This document shows, piece after piece, positions 20,431-35,279 of a stretch of DNA of 49,412 nt. The DNA is from Bacillota bacterium. Its GTDB lineage: Bacteria; Sysuimicrobiota; Sysuimicrobiia; Sysuimicrobiales; Segetimicrobiaceae. Position numbers and translations under genes: made by a program. Position 1 is the stretch's first letter, and each line of letters begins with the position of its first letter. The stretch is taken from contig JAJPIA010000026.1 of assembly GCA_021324975.1 (NCBI GenBank), forward strand, positions 1 to 49,412. The letters are read 5' to 3'. The notes below the pieces were generated by a model. The model saw only the letters and a program-made list of their open reading frames with translations. It did no database searches and had not been told where the DNA came from.

Positions 20431-20687
20431 CGGTTCGACCCCCTTTTCCTCACGTCCCGCCGATGCGATCGCGGGACGGGCTCCTGCCGGCATGGCGCCG
20501 GCGAACACCCATGGATGATCGGGAGCGTTCGCTGGACGCCGGAAAGAATCCCTCCTCGCGGGACCACTCACCGCGACGGGCGTGGGAACTCGGGCATCCT
20601 GGTGATTACGGCATCGTTGACGAGAAACATTTGGCATTTCGCAGAAAGTCGTGGATAAGATGTCGAGGTACGAACACATGCGGGCTA

Positions 20688-20716
20688 TTGACTGCCTTCC
20701 GGTCTTTGCGGATAAT
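20688..20716 (+). promoter_or_regulatory. Sigma-70-type promoter of the riboswitch transcript
   Basis: TTGACT (20688-20693) and GATAAT (20711-20716) are separated by exactly 17 bases. Each differs from the consensus at one position. Transcription would begin near 20723, about 35 bases before the c-di-GMP aptamer. Confidence 0.7.
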
Positions 20717-20757
20717 CCGCATACAAACTCACGCTGCAATTGCACGCTGGGTTGGTA

Positions 20758-20833
20758 CTCCCAACAGGGCAAACCCGGAGCAATTCGGGGACGCAAAGCC
20801 ACGGGACCCTCGAGGTCGGCCGGGTTGCGGGAG
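20758..20833 (+). ncRNA. Cyclic di-GMP-I (GEMM) riboswitch aptamer
   Basis: The sequence shows the conserved GEMM-I elements in order: P1 strand CTCCC (20758-20762), AACAGGGCAAACC, a 6-bp stem CCCGGA/TTCGGG capped by the GNRA tetraloop GCAA, the invariant GGACGCAAAGCC, a second hairpin GACC-CTCGA-GGTC, then CGGCCGGGTTGC and the closing P1 strand GGGAG (20829-20833). The GNRA loop normally docks into the second stem, and the aptamer binds c-di-GMP with nanomolar or tighter affinity in known examples. It sits between a good promoter and an intrinsic terminator. Confidence 0.92.
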
Positions 20834-20854
20834 GAAAAGCAGAGCAAGAGTTGG

Positions 20855-20894
20855 CGCGGGCAAGCTATGCCAAAATGCTCGCGTTTTTATTTTT
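20855..20894 (+). terminator. Riboswitch expression-platform terminator
   Basis: CGCGGGCA (20855-20862) pairs with TGCTCGCG (20876-20883), one G-U in eight pairs, with a 13-base loop, and is followed directly by TTTTTATTTTT (20884-20894). This is the only textbook intrinsic terminator seen in the window. It starts 22 bases after the aptamer, so ligand control of termination is the likely mechanism. Whether c-di-GMP turns the genes on or off cannot be decided by eye. Confidence 0.8.
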
Positions 20895-20992
20895 CCTCTC
20901 CGCTTGTCATTGTAGTAGCAGCTGCGCGAATAACCCCTACATCGTGTACGCGGGAGCGACGGAGGGGATGAGAGGGGCGAAAGCGACGAGTC

Positions 20993-21322
20993 ATGCCCAG
21001 ACCTAAGGAGCCGGATGACAGGCGCGGGGAGCGCGAACGGCGCGAGAGAGACGAGCACGCCCACCGCGGGCATGAGCCGCGCGAGCGCGACCGCGAGTGG
21101 GATGAGGGGCGTCCCCGGCCGGACGCCGGCGGCCGCGAGCACGCGGTGTTTCAGCAAATTATCGACCGGCGCCTGAGCGGCGGCGCTCCGGCCACATCCG
21201 AGGCGTATGCGCGCGCCCTTGAGCAGTGGCACCAACTGCCGGGATCGATTGTCCGGCCGCCCACGGACGAGAAACCGGCGCTGAAGGCGCGGGAGGATGG
21301 TGGGGAGGCGCCCACGCCATGA
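20993..21322 (+). CDS. Small charged protein coupled to the propeller protein
   Basis: A 109-residue protein. Residues 1-50 are almost entirely Arg, Glu, Asp, His and Pro and look disordered; residues 50-95 hold a compact motif FQQIIDRRLSGGAPATSEAY, then ARALEQWHQLPGSIVRPPTD. No signal peptide, no known domain. GAGGGGCGAAAGCG precedes ATG 20993. Its TGA overlaps the ATG of the propeller gene (ATGA at 21319-21322), so the two are translationally coupled and probably work together. It is the first gene after the c-di-GMP riboswitch terminator. Confidence 0.65.
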   Translation: MPRPKEPDDRRGERERRERDEHAHRGHEPRERDREWDEGRPRPDAGGREHAVFQQIIDRRLSGGAPATSEAYARALEQWHQLPGSIVRPPTDEKPALKAREDGGEAPTP

Positions 21323-23562
21323 GCCTTAAGGGCACGGTTTGGGCGCCGCTGGGCCCAAGCCCAATCGCCGAGGGCAGCACCAATGCAAACGGCCTGGTCT
21401 CGTCTATCGCCGTTCATCCTACCAACCTGAACATCATCTACATTGGGACGGTCGGCGGCGGCGTCTGGCGCACGCAGAATGGCGGCGTAAGTTGGACGCC
21501 TATCTTCGATCGCCAACTGGCCCTGGGCGCGGGCGAGCCTGCTGCCATCGCAATCGATCCGAACAGTCCCGATACGGTTTACGTTGGGACGAGCGGACGG
21601 TTTGCCCCGCAGCCGCCAGCAGGCCTGTTCAAGTCAACGGACGGCGGGGCGAGCTGGGTGCAGCTAGGTTCTGGCTATCCCGCCGGCAATACCGGCAACG
21701 CGACGCAATTTTTCAACCAGTCGATTGACGCCATCATCGTTGATCCGGCCGCGAGCAACGTCATCTATCTGGCGTGTTCGAGAGGGTTGTTCCGTTCAAC
21801 GGACAGCGGTCAGAATTGGACTCCGGGCAGCAACGGCTTTGGGGACGCGCGCACCATGGTGCTCGACACCTCCACGCCCGCAAACGCCCGCATCCTCTAC
21901 GCCGGGATTGCCGGCCGCGGTGCGTTCCGCTCGAACGACGGCGGACAGAACTGGACGCAGGTGCTGAGCGGAAGCACGCCGGTGGTAGCGGCGGCGATCG
22001 GCGCGTCACCGCGTGGCTTCAACAAAGTCGTGGTCGCACTGGCCCCGCCCACCCAACCCGTACCGAATCCCGCCGGCGTGCAGGTGCTCTATGTGAGCCT
22101 CGAGGGCACCGGCGGCGCCCCCGACCCGGTGGGGCTTTTCATGAGCACGAACCAAGGTGGCGCCTGGGTGCAGCAGACGGCGACCGGAATGCCAACGAGG
22201 TCGCAGGGTGGCTACAGCTTCCACATGGCCGTCGATCCCGGTTCGCCCGGTGACGGGATCAACGACATCATCTATTTCGGCTGTGTGGGCCAGGCAAAGT
22301 CCACCAATTCAGGCAACAGTTTTGCCGGCATGAGCGGGTTGCACGCCGACACACATTCCTGGGCATTCATCCCCCAGCCGAATCCGATCCCCTCGGTCGT
22401 GTTCTGCGGCAACGACGGCGGGATCGACAAATCCACGGACGGCGGCGCCACCTGGGTAACCCTGAACTCCGGCGGGCTCCAGACGGGCCTCTTCTACAAC
22501 ATCGACATCAAGCCCGATGCAACCGGCAGCGTGACGGTGGGGGCGCTCCAGGACAACGAAATTGAGACGACGGCGGGGGCAGCGGGGCTGGGCTGGGTCG
22601 CTACCGAGGGCGGTGACGGCTGGGACGTGGCCTACGATGCGGCCGTGCCGGGCCAGGTCTACGGCAGTAGCGGTTTTTGGTCGCCGGCCCCGTGCACCCG
22701 GGTACACCGTTCCACCAATGATGGGAAGAATTTTTCAACCGAGATCACGCCCTGGGGCACCACCACGGACGGCGGCTGCTACCTGGCGGGTGTGACGACT
22801 GACCCGAGCACAGGCAACATTGTTTACGTGAGTGGCAGCCAGAACCTCTGGCAAAGCCGCGATGGCGGCAATACCTGGCGCCTGCTGTCTCCGTTCAATG
22901 CCGCGGGTAACGTCGATGTGGCACGGGCGAACGGCAACTATGTGGTCATCGCGGTCGGCAACCAGGTGTTCGTGTCGACGAATGCACTGGCGGCCACTGT
23001 CGGGCCGCCCTCGGGCGTGACGTTCGCGAACATCACGCGCAACCTTCCTAGCCGCAACGTAGCACGCGCAGTTTTTGATCCGACCGATCCGACGACGATT
23101 TATGCCGTCTTGGGTGGCTTCAACGGCGGCGGCGCAGGGCAGCAAGGGCACGTTTTCCGCACCACGGTCAGCGCGAGCGGGTGGACCGACATTTCGCCGG
23201 CGCTCGATGTCCCCTTCAACGCGATCGCGTTGGATGGCTCGGAGACGCCCTCGACCATCTATGCAGGCACTGATTTTGGCGTGCTTCGCTCGGTCGATGC
23301 CGGCCAGTCGTGGTCCGTCCTGGACGATATTCACTTCCCGCGGGTTCCGGTTCTCGACCTGATTTACCTCGACGGCAACTTGCGGGCCGCCACGTATGGA
23401 CGAGGTGCATTCGGCTTGGTGAAGCCGACCGGGCCCAGCATTGCCGTTCATCTGGATCAAGGACTCGCCTTCGGAACTGTTTGTCGGGGCCCACAGTACC
23501 TGAACCTCGAGGTCTATAACGTCGGGCGCAGAACCTGGTTATCAACAGCGTCCAGCGGCTGA
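21319..23562 (+). CDS. BNR/Asp-box (sortilin-like) beta-propeller protein, N-terminal part
   Basis: A 747-residue product with many Asp-box (SxDxGxxW) repeats: WRTQNGGVSW, FKSTDGGASW, FRSTDSGQNW, FRSNDGGQNW, DKSTDGGATW, HRSTNDGKNF, WQSRDGGNTW, LRSVDAGQSW, each with a DPxxPxxxYxG-type strand. These form beta-propeller blades as in sialidase/Vps10-like proteins; no sialidase catalytic set is evident. After the propeller (about residue 700) it enters a choice-of-anchor-D-like sandwich (GLAFGTVCRGPQYLNLEVYNVG), then changes to WLSTASSG and stops. The next frame continues that very domain, so this is probably one gene with a frameshift near 23528. No signal peptide is apparent. The ATG overlaps the stop of the 109-residue gene upstream. 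Confidence 0.85.
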   Translation: MSLKGTVWAPLGPSPIAEGSTNANGLVSSIAVHPTNLNIIYIGTVGGGVWRTQNGGVSWTPIFDRQLALGAGEPAAIAIDPNSPDTVYVGTSGRFAPQPPAGLFKSTDGGASWVQLGSGYPAGNTGNATQFFNQSIDAIIVDPAASNVIYLACSRGLFRSTDSGQNWTPGSNGFGDARTMVLDTSTPANARILYAGIAGRGAFRSNDGGQNWTQVLSGSTPVVAAAIGASPRGFNKVVVALAPPTQPVPNPAGVQVLYVSLEGTGGAPDPVGLFMSTNQGGAWVQQTATGMPTRSQGGYSFHMAVDPGSPGDGINDIIYFGCVGQAKSTNSGNSFAGMSGLHADTHSWAFIPQPNPIPSVVFCGNDGGIDKSTDGGATWVTLNSGGLQTGLFYNIDIKPDATGSVTVGALQDNEIETTAGAAGLGWVATEGGDGWDVAYDAAVPGQVYGSSGFWSPAPCTRVHRSTNDGKNFSTEITPWGTTTDGGCYLAGVTTDPSTGNIVYVSGSQNLWQSRDGGNTWRLLSPFNAAGNVDVARANGNYVVIAVGNQVFVSTNALAATVGPPSGVTFANITRNLPSRNVARAVFDPTDPTTIYAVLGGFNGGGAGQQGHVFRTTVSASGWTDISPALDVPFNAIALDGSETPSTIYAGTDFGVLRSVDAGQSWSVLDDIHFPRVPVLDLIYLDGNLRAATYGRGAFGLVKPTGPSIAVHLDQGLAFGTVCRGPQYLNLEVYNVGRRTWLSTASSG

Positions 23563-24950
23563 TGGGATCGTCCGGTTTTTCGGTGCTGCCGACACCCGCG
23601 ACGCCGCTGGTGGTGGCCCCGGGTGAAGATATCGAGTTCACGGTCGCGTACACGCCCACGGTCGTGGGGACGCCCGAGATCGCCACCATCCGCATCAGCA
23701 GCAATGATCCCACAGCCCCATTCGTGGACCTCGCGGCGACGGGTATCCAAGGGACGCCGACGCTCGGAACCGCCGTCGCGAACAACGGAAGCATGGGCCA
23801 GACCTGCCTGGGCTCGTTTGCGGAAGAAGAACTGACCATCAACAACTCCGGAGTCTGCCCGCTACGTGTCAGCAGCATTACGTCGTCTTCCGCTGAGTTC
23901 CTGGCGCCGCACCTTTCAGCGCCGCTCCTTGTGGACCCCGGTGAATCGACCGAGGTCACAATCCGTTTTCAGCCGGCGAGCTTCGGCGCGAAGATGGCGA
24001 CCCTCACGCTCATCAGCAACGATCCGGCGGGGCCGCGCACGGTGACCGTGTCTGGGCTAGCGCCCGCGCCGCGGTTGGCGCTCATCTTCGCCAACAACGG
24101 CAACATGGGTAACTGCTGCGTCGGTTCCTTCACGGACGAGCCGCTCGTCCTGACGAACGCCGGCCCCTGCACTCTGACGGTTGCCAACATCACGTCTTCT
24201 TCCGGCGAGTTTTTGGTCCCGGAGGTATTGTCCTATCCGGTGACGATCGAACCCGGAGCCGCACTGGAGATCCCGATCCGATTCCAGCCGACCAGTTTCG
24301 GGGCAAAGTCGGCGACCATTACCGTCAACAGCGACGATCCCGCGGGACCACGCACCGTCGAGGTGTCTGGCAACGCTCCTTCCGGAAGGATCGCCGTGAC
24401 GGGGTCCGCCTATTTCGGCGGGGTGAAGTGCGGCCGGCGGGCGTTCCGGACATTGGCCGTCTGCAACGTGGGCGACTGCGACCTGCACGTCACCAAGGTA
24501 GCCTTCGAGCACGCGAGTCACCACTGGAGGCTCGTCCATAATCCGTTCCCGGCCACCCTCCATCCCGGGTCGTGCCTGAATGTCGTGATCGAGTACAAGG
24601 CAACCCAGAGAGAGCCGCGGCCCTGTGAGTTGGTGATCACGAGCGACGATCCGGTGACGCCCATCCGAGAGGTGGAGGTGATCGCCTGGACGCGTTGCTG
24701 CTGCAAGCTGTGTTGCGAGCGGTGCCGCGAGGGGCGCTGGTGCTCGTGTCGCCATAAGGCGTGCTGCGAGGAGCACGACCGCGAGTGCTGCGGAGAACGG
24801 TGGGAACGCCGGAGACGGTGGCATAGGGAATGCCATGAAGAGCATCCTCCGGAGCGCGCCGAGTCGCACGATGACACATCGAGTGAACGATGGGCGGACA
24901 AAGAGCCCCACGACGAAGAGAGCGAGGAAGATGAGTGCGGCGAAACGTGA
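23562..24950 (+). CDS. Choice-of-anchor-D repeat protein with Cys-rich tail (continuation of the propeller gene)
   Basis: This frame carries immunoglobulin-like choice-of-anchor-D/ASH repeats of about 100 residues. Two are nearly alike: each runs from ANNGxMGxxCxGSF, through ITSSSxEFL, to RFQPxSFGAKxATxT, SxDPAGPRTV. A fourth, divergent repeat follows (SAYFGGVKCGRRAFRTLAV). The first repeat is split with the preceding frame. From about residue 375 a tail of ~88 residues has 14 Cys, many in CC or CCC runs (TRCCCKLCCERC, CSCRHKACCEEHDRECC), followed by an acidic, His-rich end. ATG 23562 overlaps the previous stop as TGATG, so separate translation is possible, but the domain split argues for a frameshift. 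The tail may bind metal or be disulfide-rich (inference). Confidence 0.75.
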   Translation: MGSSGFSVLPTPATPLVVAPGEDIEFTVAYTPTVVGTPEIATIRISSNDPTAPFVDLAATGIQGTPTLGTAVANNGSMGQTCLGSFAEEELTINNSGVCPLRVSSITSSSAEFLAPHLSAPLLVDPGESTEVTIRFQPASFGAKMATLTLISNDPAGPRTVTVSGLAPAPRLALIFANNGNMGNCCVGSFTDEPLVLTNAGPCTLTVANITSSSGEFLVPEVLSYPVTIEPGAALEIPIRFQPTSFGAKSATITVNSDDPAGPRTVEVSGNAPSGRIAVTGSAYFGGVKCGRRAFRTLAVCNVGDCDLHVTKVAFEHASHHWRLVHNPFPATLHPGSCLNVVIEYKATQREPRPCELVITSDDPVTPIREVEVIAWTRCCCKLCCERCREGRWCSCRHKACCEEHDRECCGERWERRRRWHRECHEEHPPERAESHDDTSSERWADKEPHDEESEEDECGET

Positions 24951-31831: not shown

Positions 31832-32099
31832 TGCGGGAACGGGGCGCGACCGTGGGTGTGCTGCTCGTTCCCGCGGAAGCATCGCACGCTTTGGCGAAGG
31901 GAGTGCGCTGGTCAAAATGGAATCCTGCATGGAGATCAGTCCAACCGGAAGCCAGAGGGCGCCGCAGTTCCCGCGCGTTGTTCTCGAAAGATAGCCTATC
32001 GTTGTAGCGCGGGTGTCTGCGCAAACGTCTGGCAAGCCGGGTGCCGGAAGCGGCAACCGCCGTCGGCGTGGCGGGGGACGGGCGACAGGGGAACCTTCC

Positions 32100-35000
32100 A
32101 TGGCACAGCGTTCCGACGTGGCAGCGAAGCTCAATGCGCTCAAATGGCGCTGCATCGGCCCGCCTCGCGGCGGCCGGGTGGTCGCCGTCGCGGGCGACCC
32201 CACGGACCGCAGCGTGTTCTATTTCGGCGCCTGCGCCGGCGGTGTGTGGAAGACCACCGATGGCGGCACGTATTGGCGTTGCGTGAGCGATGGATATCTC
32301 GGCTCGGCCGCGATTGGTGCGCTCGCCGTCGCCCCATCGGATCCCAATGTGCTTTACGCCGGGACCGGGGAAACCTCGATCCGGCTCGATGTCTCCTACG
32401 GCGACGGCGTTTACAAATCGACCGATGCCGGCCGCACCTGGAGCCACTTGGGTCTCCGCGAGACCCGGTTCATCGGTCGCATCCGCATCCATCCACAAAA
32501 CCCCGACCTCGTCTATGTCGCCGCACTCGGTGACGCCTTCGGCGCGAACGAGGAACGCGGGGTGTTCCGATCGGAAGACGGTGGTCGGACCTGGAGCAAG
32601 GTACTCTATCGAAACGCGGATGCGGGCGCCGTCGATCTGTCGATAGACCCGCACAACCCCCGCATCTTCTTCGCGGCTTTCTGGCAGACCCGCCGGAGCT
32701 TCTGGAATCTGTCGAGCGGGGGCCCTGGAAGCGGCCTGTTTCGCTCGACGGATGGCGGCACAAGCTGGACCGAGATCTCGCGATATCCGGGTCTACCGAC
32801 CGGTCCACTCGGCAAGATCGGCGTGGCGGTGTCGCCCGCCCGGGCCGGCCGCGTGTGGGCGCTGGTGGAGACGGAAGCGGAGAAGACGGGGCTGTACCGA
32901 TCGGAGGATTACGGCGAGAATTGGACGCTCGTGTCATCCAATCGCGACCTCATGCACCGGCCCTGGTACTATACACATGTCTTCGCCGACCCGCGTCACG
33001 CCGAGACGGTGTACATCGGCAATTTTCAGTTGTGGAAATCAACCGACGGCGGCACGGGGTTCACCGAGATCCAGACGCCGCATGGCGACAATCATGATCT
33101 CTGGATCGATCCTGCCGATTCGGACCGGATGATCGAGGGAAACGACGGCGGCGCCTGCGTCAGCTTCAACGGCGGTGAGACCTGGTCGACGATCTACAAC
33201 CAACCCACCGCGCAGTTTTATCGCATCGACATCGATAATCAGCACCCCTATCGCGTGTACGGCACCCAGCAAGACAACACTTCGATCTCGGTGCCGAGCG
33301 CCACCGCCTGGGGCGCGATCACGCTCGGCGACTGCTCATATCCCGGTACCGGGGAGAGCGGTTTTATTGCCGTCAACCCCGACGACCCGAACGTGGTCTA
33401 TTGCGGCGCCATCGGCTCGAGCCCCGGCGGCGCCGGCGCGTTGCAGCGTTACGATCACCGCACCCGGCAGATCCAGCTGGTGAATGTGTGGCCCGAGGAA
33501 TCGACCGGCGTCGCGCCCAAGGACATGCGCTACCGGTTCGCCTGGACGTTCCCGATCGTCTTCTCGCCGCACGACAGCGGCACCCTGTACGCGGGCGGGA
33601 ACCACGTGTTCCGGAGCCGCGACGAGGGCATGAGCTGGGAGGAAATTTCGCCGGATCTGAGCCTCAACGATAAGAGCCGCCAGGGGCATTCCGGCGGCGA
33701 CATCACGCATGAGAGCGCCGGGGCGGAGGTGCACGCCACGTGCGCGTCGATCGCCCCATCGCCGCACCGGCCCGACGAGATATGGGCCTCGACCGATGAC
33801 GGGCTCGTTCACGTGACACGGGACGGCGGCAAGAACTGGCGGAACGTCACCCCGCCCGCCATGCCGGAACTCGCCTACGTCGGGTGCGTCGAGATCTCGC
33901 CGCACGACCCCGATACGATCTACCTCGCGGCGACTTGCTACAAGCTCGCCGATTACCGTCCGTACCTGTTCCGCAGCACCGACGGCGGGCGACGCTTCGA
34001 ATCGATCAACGGCGATTTCCCGGAGAACGAGATTACCCGCGTCGTGCGCGCGGACCCGGTCCGCAAGGGGTTGTTGTTCGTCGGCACCGAGACCGGCGCC
34101 TATTTTACGCTGAACGACGGCCGCAACTGGGTACGCATGGGCGGCGGGCTGCCGGTCGTGCCGGTCTACGATCTGAAGATCAAGGGGGCGGACCTTGTGG
34201 CCGGAACCCACGGCCGTTCCTTCTGGATCTTGGACGATATCACGCCGCTGAGGCGCGTCGAGGAGAGCCAACAGCGTTCTCGCCTCTTTGAGCCGCGCGA
34301 GACGGTTCGCTATAAGCCGCATTTCGGGGCCCTGCGAAATCTCCGGCCAAGCGGCGTCGCATTCGCGGTCGCCCCCGGATTGGGCGGCGGCATCCGGACC
34401 TACCGCAAGCCGGACGGGACGAGCGGGCGCGAGTATCTCGACGTCGGCGAAAATCCTCCAAGCGGCGCCATCGTCTATTACTGGCTGCCCGACGGTGTGT
34501 CCGGCCCGCTCGCGCTCACCTTCCGCGATGCCGCGGGAGCCGAGATCGTGTGCTTCCGCAGCGACGACGGCACGCTGGCGCCCGCGAAGCGACCGCCAAT
34601 GCACCCCGGACTCAACCGGTTCGTGTGGGATCTCAAATACCCGGGGCCTGAGACGCTCGACACGAGTCTGGCCCCGCCGCGCAACCAACCGTTGGCGGAG
34701 CCGGCGGAGCCTCCGACGGGGCCCACGGTCGTCCCGGGGCGATATCGGGTAGAGTTGTCGCTCGGTTCGGAAACAACCGCCGCGGACTTCTCCGTCGTGA
34801 AGGATCCGCGTCTCGCGACGACCCCGGAGGCCTACCGCGAGCAGTTCGAGCTTTTGCGCGAATTGACGGCATCTCTCGGCAAGGTCTACGCGACGGTCAA
34901 TCGCATCCGTCGGTTGAAGCAGCGGCTCAACGTGCTGGCCGTTGGGTCGGACGCCGGCTCACGCGACCTGGCCGCGCGGGCGGCCGCTGTGATGGAACAG

Positions 35001-35279
35001 TTGTCGGCGGTCGAAGGCGTGCTGGTCGACGTCCACCGCCAGTCGGACCGGGACGTGCTGCGCAATCCCGCCGGCCTCAATGATATGCTTGGGGACCTGA
35101 TCAGCACGGTGTCTGTCGCCGACGCCGCGCCGACGAAGCAGGCGGCGGCGGTGTCAAAAGAGGTCACGGCGCGCGTCGATGCGGAGGTCGGCAAGGTCGA
35201 GCGACTCATCGCTACCGAGGTCGCCGCGGTCACCCGCTCGGCCCTGGAGCGGGGGGTGGAAACGCCGCGCGGAGGTTGA
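32100..35279 (+). CDS. Vps10/BNR-repeat beta-propeller protein (sortilin-like glycosyl-hydrolase family)
   Basis: A 1059-residue protein. Residues 10-720 hold two adjoining propellers with Asp-box blades: VWKTTDGGTYW (about 49-59), VYKSTDAGRTW, FRSEDGGRTW, FRSTDGGTSW, YRSEDYGENW, WKSTDGGTGF, FRSRDEGMSW, HVTRDGGKNW, FRSTDGGRRF. Then GTHGRSFWILDDITPLR leads to a beta-rich region and a helical C-terminus with a coiled-coil-like stretch (RIRRLKQRLNVLA). This matches large bacterial WD40/YVTN/BNR proteins annotated as glycosyl hydrolases; relatives usually carry a signal peptide, which is absent here. ATG 32100 follows GGGGAACC; an earlier in-frame start at 32013 is basic and unlikely. Confidence 0.85.
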   Translation: MAQRSDVAAKLNALKWRCIGPPRGGRVVAVAGDPTDRSVFYFGACAGGVWKTTDGGTYWRCVSDGYLGSAAIGALAVAPSDPNVLYAGTGETSIRLDVSYGDGVYKSTDAGRTWSHLGLRETRFIGRIRIHPQNPDLVYVAALGDAFGANEERGVFRSEDGGRTWSKVLYRNADAGAVDLSIDPHNPRIFFAAFWQTRRSFWNLSSGGPGSGLFRSTDGGTSWTEISRYPGLPTGPLGKIGVAVSPARAGRVWALVETEAEKTGLYRSEDYGENWTLVSSNRDLMHRPWYYTHVFADPRHAETVYIGNFQLWKSTDGGTGFTEIQTPHGDNHDLWIDPADSDRMIEGNDGGACVSFNGGETWSTIYNQPTAQFYRIDIDNQHPYRVYGTQQDNTSISVPSATAWGAITLGDCSYPGTGESGFIAVNPDDPNVVYCGAIGSSPGGAGALQRYDHRTRQIQLVNVWPEESTGVAPKDMRYRFAWTFPIVFSPHDSGTLYAGGNHVFRSRDEGMSWEEISPDLSLNDKSRQGHSGGDITHESAGAEVHATCASIAPSPHRPDEIWASTDDGLVHVTRDGGKNWRNVTPPAMPELAYVGCVEISPHDPDTIYLAATCYKLADYRPYLFRSTDGGRRFESINGDFPENEITRVVRADPVRKGLLFVGTETGAYFTLNDGRNWVRMGGGLPVVPVYDLKIKGADLVAGTHGRSFWILDDITPLRRVEESQQRSRLFEPRETVRYKPHFGALRNLRPSGVAFAVAPGLGGGIRTYRKPDGTSGREYLDVGENPPSGAIVYYWLPDGVSGPLALTFRDAAGAEIVCFRSDDGTLAPAKRPPMHPGLNRFVWDLKYPGPETLDTSLAPPRNQPLAEPAEPPTGPTVVPGRYRVELSLGSETTAADFSVVKDPRLATTPEAYREQFELLRELTASLGKVYATVNRIRRLKQRLNVLAVGSDAGSRDLAARAAAVMEQLSAVEGVLVDVHRQSDRDVLRNPAGLNDMLGDLISTVSVADAAPTKQAAAVSKEVTARVDAEVGKVERLIATEVAAVTRSALERGVETPRGG

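What the first reader, a model, noticed from the sequence alone, without database searches (positions are those of the whole stretch)
20688..21322. Complete c-di-GMP riboswitch unit driving an uncharacterised protein pair
Seen: near-consensus promoter (17-base spacing), GEMM-I aptamer with closed P1 and GNRA loop, intrinsic terminator with U-run 22 bases later, then two overlapping genes. Known: GEMM-I controls motility, adhesion and surface genes. Inference: c-di-GMP controls production of a large beta-propeller/anchor-D/Cys-rich protein, an undescribed riboswitch output as far as I know.
Basis: partly seen in the sequence, partly recalled or inferred. Interest (0 to 1): 0.85.

Follow-up and report, generated by a model that had tools for sequence, protein, structure and literature searches.

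The report
c-di-GMP riboswitch before orphan propeller operon
A soil bacterium of the little-known phylum Sysuimicrobiota carries a genuine RNA sensor for the signal molecule c-di-GMP in front of a genome-specific set of genes for a large propeller-shaped protein; the sensor is of a known kind, but its promoter-plus-sensor unit recurs in front of other unrelated, lineage-specific genes.

Summary
Window 20759-20833 (+) is a c-di-GMP class I aptamer: 62.3 bits for Rfam RF03167 (the "GGC" variant) and 59.4 for RF01051 (canonical), over both cut-offs. The residues at the three ligand-contact positions are canonical (G20, A47, C92), not the G47 of the GGC consensus, so c-di-GMP is the likely ligand. 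The promoter and a terminator-like hairpin are real. The genome has 11 such hits, one before a GAF-GGDEF gene, and encodes 14 GGDEF domains; all 43 genomes of the order searched have them.

Corrections: the output is a 109-aa orphan, a GH74-like double propeller lacking one catalytic Asp, and an anchor-D/Cys-rich frame that is probably the propeller gene's own C-terminus cut off by a frame break. No ortholog exists in the other 42 genomes and synteny breaks 200 bp upstream, so the pairing is not conserved. The terminator is not ligand-switchable in equilibrium folding; ON or OFF is open.

New: a composite promoter (GAACACA, 8-9 bases, TTGAC, -10) occurs three times in the genome, always before this aptamer subtype; the two readable downstream genes are unrelated and genome-specific, suggesting a reusable promoter-riboswitch cassette. 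A known kind of switch with unusual targets.

The parts
20671..20678 (+). CGAACACA box, 9 bases upstream of the -35 hexamer
   Evidence: Box at 8-9 bases from TTGAC upstream of seven A1-type aptamers; GAACACA-N7..9-TTGAC-..-ATAAT occurs 3 times in the whole genome, all before these aptamers; reversed-pattern control 0 in 44 genomes
20688..20716 (+). sigma-70-type promoter, TTGACT-17-GATAAT
20759..20833 (+). c-di-GMP-I (GEMM-I) aptamer; G20 at 20768, A47 at 20795, C92 at 20828
   Evidence: two Rfam models; 64-row alignment, covariation
20827..20903 (+). alternative long hairpin: P1 3' strand (20827-20838) pairs with 20891-20898 and 20900-20903; mutually exclusive with P1
   Evidence: z -3.25; stronger than 99.9% of 40-mers of the contig for this strand; 3% of random pairs at this spacing are as strong
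20836..20889 (+). competing hairpin that shares the terminator's 3' arm and takes part of the T-run into its stem
   Evidence: (-18.9 against about -13.8 to -15 kcal/mol for the terminator hairpin)
20853..20894 (+). candidate intrinsic terminator: stem 20853-20862/20876-20885 and TTTTTATTTTT
20993..21322 (+). ORF1, 109 aa, Arg/Glu-rich, no known family
21319..23562 (+). ORF2, 747 aa, BNR/sortilin-type, GH74-like double beta-propeller, no evident signal peptide; ATGA overlap with ORF1
23562..24950 (+). ORF3, 462 aa, choice-of-anchor D (HYDIN-like Ig) domains and Cys-rich tail; continues the domain that ORF2 begins, in another frame

Best explanation
A c-di-GMP class I riboswitch controls transcription of a lineage-specific operon. 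RNA polymerase starts about seven bases after the -10 hexamer (inferred); the leader folds into a GEMM-I aptamer whose pocket has the c-di-GMP-contacting bases G20, A47 and C92 (shown by alignment). When c-di-GMP is bound, P1 is held closed; when it is not, the 3' strand of P1 is free to enter a long hairpin that spans the terminator (pairing computed, use inferred). This decides whether transcripts run on into ORF1, the propeller gene and its anchor-D/Cys-rich continuation (inferred; the sign is not known, ON preferred about 60:40 by analogy with Vc1-gbpA and with the ON-type platforms elsewhere in this genome). The output is probably a large non-enzymatic, cell-surface or extracellular-matrix type protein (inferred). 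The promoter-aptamer unit belongs to a subtype (A1-type) shared with two other loci in this genome and placed before unrelated genes.
For: Two covariance models over their cut-offs. Contact residues canonical: in the 64-row alignment A47 and C92 are invariant and G20 is 63/64; contacts from PMC4744006. Strong covariation: 143 cells with both-sided changes against 38 in shuffles, slid controls far lower. 11 hits in the genome and hits in all 43 genomes of the order searched (own included), almost none outside. Downstream genes include GAF-GGDEF, PilT-like ATPases, prepilin-like proteins, sigma factors, CAP-domain and BNR-propeller proteins, the usual company of c-di-GMP (names read from sequence); 14 GGDEF and one EAL domain in the genome. 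Promoter enrichment upstream of aptamers across the order 29% against 2.3%. Several sibling platforms have a terminator whose 5' arm overlaps the P1 3' strand, hence predicted ON.
Against: No ligand or expression data. In equilibrium folding the window's terminator hairpin is outcompeted in both states (P 0.02 and 0.00), so ligand dependence of termination is not shown. The terminator hairpin is ordinary for its composition (z -0.96). P1 of the window departs from its siblings (G4-C76 became C4-G76, AA bulge lost), so affinity could differ. The pairing with this operon is not conserved. The propeller frame is broken before the anchor-D part.
Confidence: 0.75

Rival explanations
1. The aptamer belongs to the c-di-GMP-I-GGC variant class and senses some other signalling dinucleotide.
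For: Best Rfam match is RF03167 (62.3 against 59.4 bits), and base 91 is G in 50 of 64 aptamers of the order.
Against: RF03167's consensus has G at Vc2 position 47; the window and all 64 aligned aptamers have A47, with G20 and C92. Many siblings score higher with RF01051 (e.g. 73.5 against 64.4 bits).
Confidence: 0.1
2. The aptamer binds c-di-GMP but no longer regulates: a duplicated or displaced copy in which terminator and competing hairpin do not respond, like Bc1, which binds but does not alter expression (PMC11218506).
For: Equilibrium folding shows no ligand-dependent change in terminator probability; the locus is a lineage-specific insertion; P1 is atypical; the propeller frame is broken.
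Against: P1 pairing is kept by a compensatory change; the P1 strand has a strong alternative partner; the promoter box is kept exactly.
Confidence: 0.2
3. The riboswitch acts on translation or RNA stability through the long hairpin 20827-20903, and the T-run is incidental.
For: The long hairpin is the best fold of the leader and uses bases beyond the T-run.
Against: It does not cover the ribosome site of ORF1, 90 bases downstream; the 11-base T-run is unique in the window.
Confidence: 0.15

Closest known systems
c-di-GMP-I (GEMM-I) riboswitch RF01051, e.g. Vc1 upstream of gbpA in Vibrio cholerae (PMC4744006)
   Same: Aptamer fold, contact residues G20/A47/C92, GNRA loop on P2, position before a gene for a probable extracellular protein
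   Different: P1 altered, base 91 often G in this order, ORF1-ORF2-ORF3 output without orthologs, composite promoter box shared with two sister switches
c-di-GMP-I-GGC riboswitch RF03167
   Same: Best covariance-model match (62.3 bits)
   Different: Lacks the G at position 47 seen in that family's consensus
Bc1 and the cbpA riboswitch of Bacillus thuringiensis (PMC11218506, PMC7423583)
   Same: Class I c-di-GMP switch with terminator (Bc1); c-di-GMP-responsive switch before a surface protein gene (cbpA)
   Different: Different genes and platform; Bc1 has two terminators and is unresponsive in vivo
GH74 xyloglucanases (1sqj, 6p2m)
   Same: Sequence and predicted fold of a double beta-propeller
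   Different: The aspartate at the position of 1sqj Asp35 is valine in ORF2; anchor-D and Cys-rich continuation

Membership tests
c-di-GMP-I riboswitch (RF01051) | covariance-model score over the curated cut-off | tested here: met
   59.4 bits against 35
c-di-GMP-I riboswitch (RF01051) | ligand-contact residues G20, A47, C92 | tested here: met
   20768 G, 20795 A, 20828 C; 63/64, 64/64 and 64/64 in the alignment; contacts from PMC4744006
c-di-GMP-I riboswitch (RF01051) | P1, P2 with GNRA loop, and P3 supported by covariation | tested here: met
   P2 loop GCAA. P1 is the weakest helix (69% of cells paired)
c-di-GMP-I riboswitch (RF01051) | binds c-di-GMP | not testable with these tools
   needs in-line probing or ITC
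c-di-GMP-I riboswitch (RF01051) | ligand-dependent expression platform | tested here: inconclusive
   alternative pairings found but no change in terminator probability at equilibrium
c-di-GMP-I-GGC variant (RF03167) | score over the curated cut-off | tested here: met
   62.3 bits against 59
c-di-GMP-I-GGC variant (RF03167) | G at Vc2 position 47, as in the family consensus (reading of the name GGC as bases 20/47/92 is my inference) | tested here: not met
   A at 20795 where the consensus printed has G; A in 64/64 aptamers
c-AMP-GMP (3',3'-cGAMP) class of GEMM-I | A at position 20 | tested here: not met
   G at 20768; A20 only in L125
GH74 xyloglucanase | double-propeller sequence and fold similarity | tested here: met
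   E 2.3e-19 to 6p2m; Foldseek E about 1e-22 to many GH74 entries with TM 0.3-0.5, from a model of low confidence (pLDDT 57)
GH74 xyloglucanase | catalytic aspartate (Asp35 of 1sqj, role from memory) | tested here: not met
   aligned to Val in ORF2; Asp465 not tested
choice-of-anchor D domain protein | NF012200 / PF22544 matches over the cut-off | tested here: met
   (ORF3)

The most novel reading that the evidence does not exclude
A duplicating regulatory cassette: one composite promoter (CGAACACA box, -35, -10) plus one c-di-GMP-I aptamer subtype is copied in front of unrelated, lineage-specific genes for large proteins mostly without a signal peptide, placing accessory surface or matrix genes under joint control of c-di-GMP and a second factor that binds the box.
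Probability: 0.3. Interest if true: 0.65.

Novelty: new member of a known kind. Interest (0 to 1): 0.45.

Why it matters
The published overview of Sysuimicrobiota that I could search (PMC11604079) does not mention riboswitches or c-di-GMP, yet every genome of the order searched carries c-di-GMP-I class aptamers, up to 13 per genome. This gives a ready list of c-di-GMP-controlled genes (pilus ATPases, prepilins, sigma factors, CAP-domain, propeller and orphan proteins) in an order known mainly from metagenomes, and a way to find orphan surface or matrix genes by their riboswitch. The shared promoter box raises a testable question: how a riboswitch with its promoter comes to sit before newly acquired genes.

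Tried and rejected
Orthologs of ORF1, ORF2 or ORF3 behind the same aptamer in the other genomes of the order: none; the ORF2 hits are propeller repeats at about 35% identity on contigs not listed with aptamers. Assignment to the GGC variant: rejected on base 47. Energy-based sign of the switch: tried for 29 platforms; informative for those whose terminator overlaps P1, not for the window. GH74 enzyme: one catalytic Asp absent. Pfam, NCBIfam and PHROGs on ORF1, and Pfam and PHROGs on the sister orphan proteins: nothing beyond a weak BNR match in one. Plasmid collection with ORF1 and with the C106 orphan: no match. Original description of the GGC class (PNAS 2017): not held; its open-ligand status is from memory.

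Full report
Setting. The window is contig C88 of a 4.43-Mb draft genome (96% complete, 4.75% contamination). Contig lengths identify two relatives by name (G002 = Centralia_MAG_47, G005 = Centralia_MAG_45), and other pattern hits in the order carry the name ANGP1, which the taxonomy places in Candidatus Sysuimicrobiales, phylum Sysuimicrobiota. The contig is native: its solute-binding-protein gene is 92% identical to a contig of the same genus.

Observation. The aptamer at 20759-20833 passes both relevant Rfam models: RF03167 at 62.3 bits (cut-off 59) and RF01051 at 59.4 (cut-off 35). The promoter is TTGACT-17-GATAAT at 20688-20716. The hairpin 20853-20885 is followed by the only 11-base stretch with at least 10 T in the window. 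ORF1 and ORF2 overlap by ATGA.

Which aptamer. The consensus of RF03167 printed reads ACGCGAAGCC where the window reads ACGCAAAGCC: by my alignment to Vc2 this is position 47. PMC4744006 names G20, A47 and C92 as the residues that contact c-di-GMP in Vc2. In the window these are G20768, A20795 and C20828. Of 93 aptamers read from the order by pattern search, all have A47 and 92 have G20 (a pattern search could miss divergent ones); in the 64-row alignment A47 and C92 are invariant. The pocket is therefore the c-di-GMP one, on a scaffold that resembles the GGC family (base 91 is G in 50 of 64). Covariation supports P1, P2 and P3; in the window a pair of P1 has flipped from G-C to C-G.

Regulon. 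The genome has 11 hits over 10-11 sites (C53 and C116 look like the two sides of one contig break); all 43 genomes of the order searched, own included, have hits, and of 18 outside one has a weak hit. Genes behind them in this genome: GAF-GGDEF (the GGDEF domain confirmed), two CAP-domain proteins, a sigma factor with MerR- and roadblock-like neighbours, a thioredoxin-like protein, a Gly-rich secreted protein behind tandem aptamers, and a 747-aa orphan. Across the order also PilT-like ATPases, prepilin- and PilX-like proteins, beta-helix proteins, BNR propellers and an RfaH-like NusG (read by eye from sequence, not profile-tested except where cited). The genome encodes 14 GGDEF and one EAL domain.

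Output. ORF2 matches sortilin/BNR models, GH74 structures by sequence and by a low-confidence model (pLDDT 57), but valine stands where 1sqj has Asp35 (that this Asp is catalytic is from memory), so it is probably not an active GH74 enzyme. ORF3 carries anchor-D domains and a Cys-rich tail (14 of its last 100 residues). The first anchor-D domain starts at the end of ORF2 and continues in the frame of ORF3, which lacks an evident ribosome site; a frame break lies about 23520-23545. Whether this is assembly error, mutation or recoding cannot be told. No signal peptide is evident in ORF1 or ORF2 (by eye), so the route out of the cell, if any, is open.

Conservation of the pairing. None of the three frames has an ortholog in the other genomes of the order. 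Similarity to the sister species G002 ends at window 20558; there G002 has a GntR-like regulator. The riboswitch operon is thus an insertion or rearrangement in this lineage.

Platform. Equilibrium folding finds three competing elements: the terminator hairpin (about -14 kcal/mol), a hairpin sharing its 3' arm (-18.9), and a long hairpin in which the P1 3' strand pairs beyond the T-run (z -3.25). The terminator loses in both the P1-open and P1-closed calculations. Sibling switches in this genome (C76, C4) have terminators that overlap the P1 3' strand and so are predicted ON. For the window the sign is open.

Cassette. The nearest aptamers to the window's (83-89% identity) form a subtype, here called A1-type. 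Upstream of seven loci read here a CGAACACA box lies 8-9 bases before TTGAC. The composite promoter occurs three times in the whole genome and four times in 44 genomes, each time before an A1-type aptamer, with none for the reversed pattern. Of the three in this genome one (C60) runs off its contig; the genes behind the other two are unrelated to each other, and each is absent from the other genomes searched. In sister genomes the same subtype precedes different large proteins (805 aa, 981 aa) with no Pfam or PHROG match, a Gly-rich protein, and prepilin-like genes. This suggests, but does not prove, that promoter and aptamer travel together.

Verdict. A genuine class I c-di-GMP riboswitch, of known kind, before a genome-specific propeller operon; the direction of control and the function of the output are untested.

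Noticed in passing
L125 (G003:C250:671-750): The only aptamer of 93 with A at position 20 (GATAAGAGCAAACC), the mark of cAMP-GMP-type GEMM-I RNAs; possible change of ligand in one species.
   Followed up: no
L015 (G000:C4:678-1948), L110 (G001:C57), L118 (G002:C39): Tandem pair of c-di-GMP-I aptamers, each with its own terminator overlapping P1, before a Gly-rich secreted protein; a third aptamer with a CAP-domain gene lies just upstream.
   Followed up: partly
L016 and L017 (G000:C53 start, C116 end): Identical aptamers at two contig ends, probably one locus or a repeat split by assembly; C60 (L014) and G002:C59 (L117) also break right after the aptamer.
   Followed up: partly
window 32013-35279: A second, larger sortilin/BNR propeller protein (1088 aa) in the same contig, with a homolog in G002 (C72) and without a riboswitch hit.
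   Followed up: partly
L124 (G003:C255): An RfaH-like NusG paralog appears to lie behind a c-di-GMP-I aptamer: a specialised antitermination factor under riboswitch control (read by eye).
   Followed up: no
L201, L204, L207, L212: The same aptamer pattern in records named Acidimicrobiaceae, Solirubrobacterales, Arthrobacter and Actinobacteria, outside Sysuimicrobiota by name.
   Followed up: no
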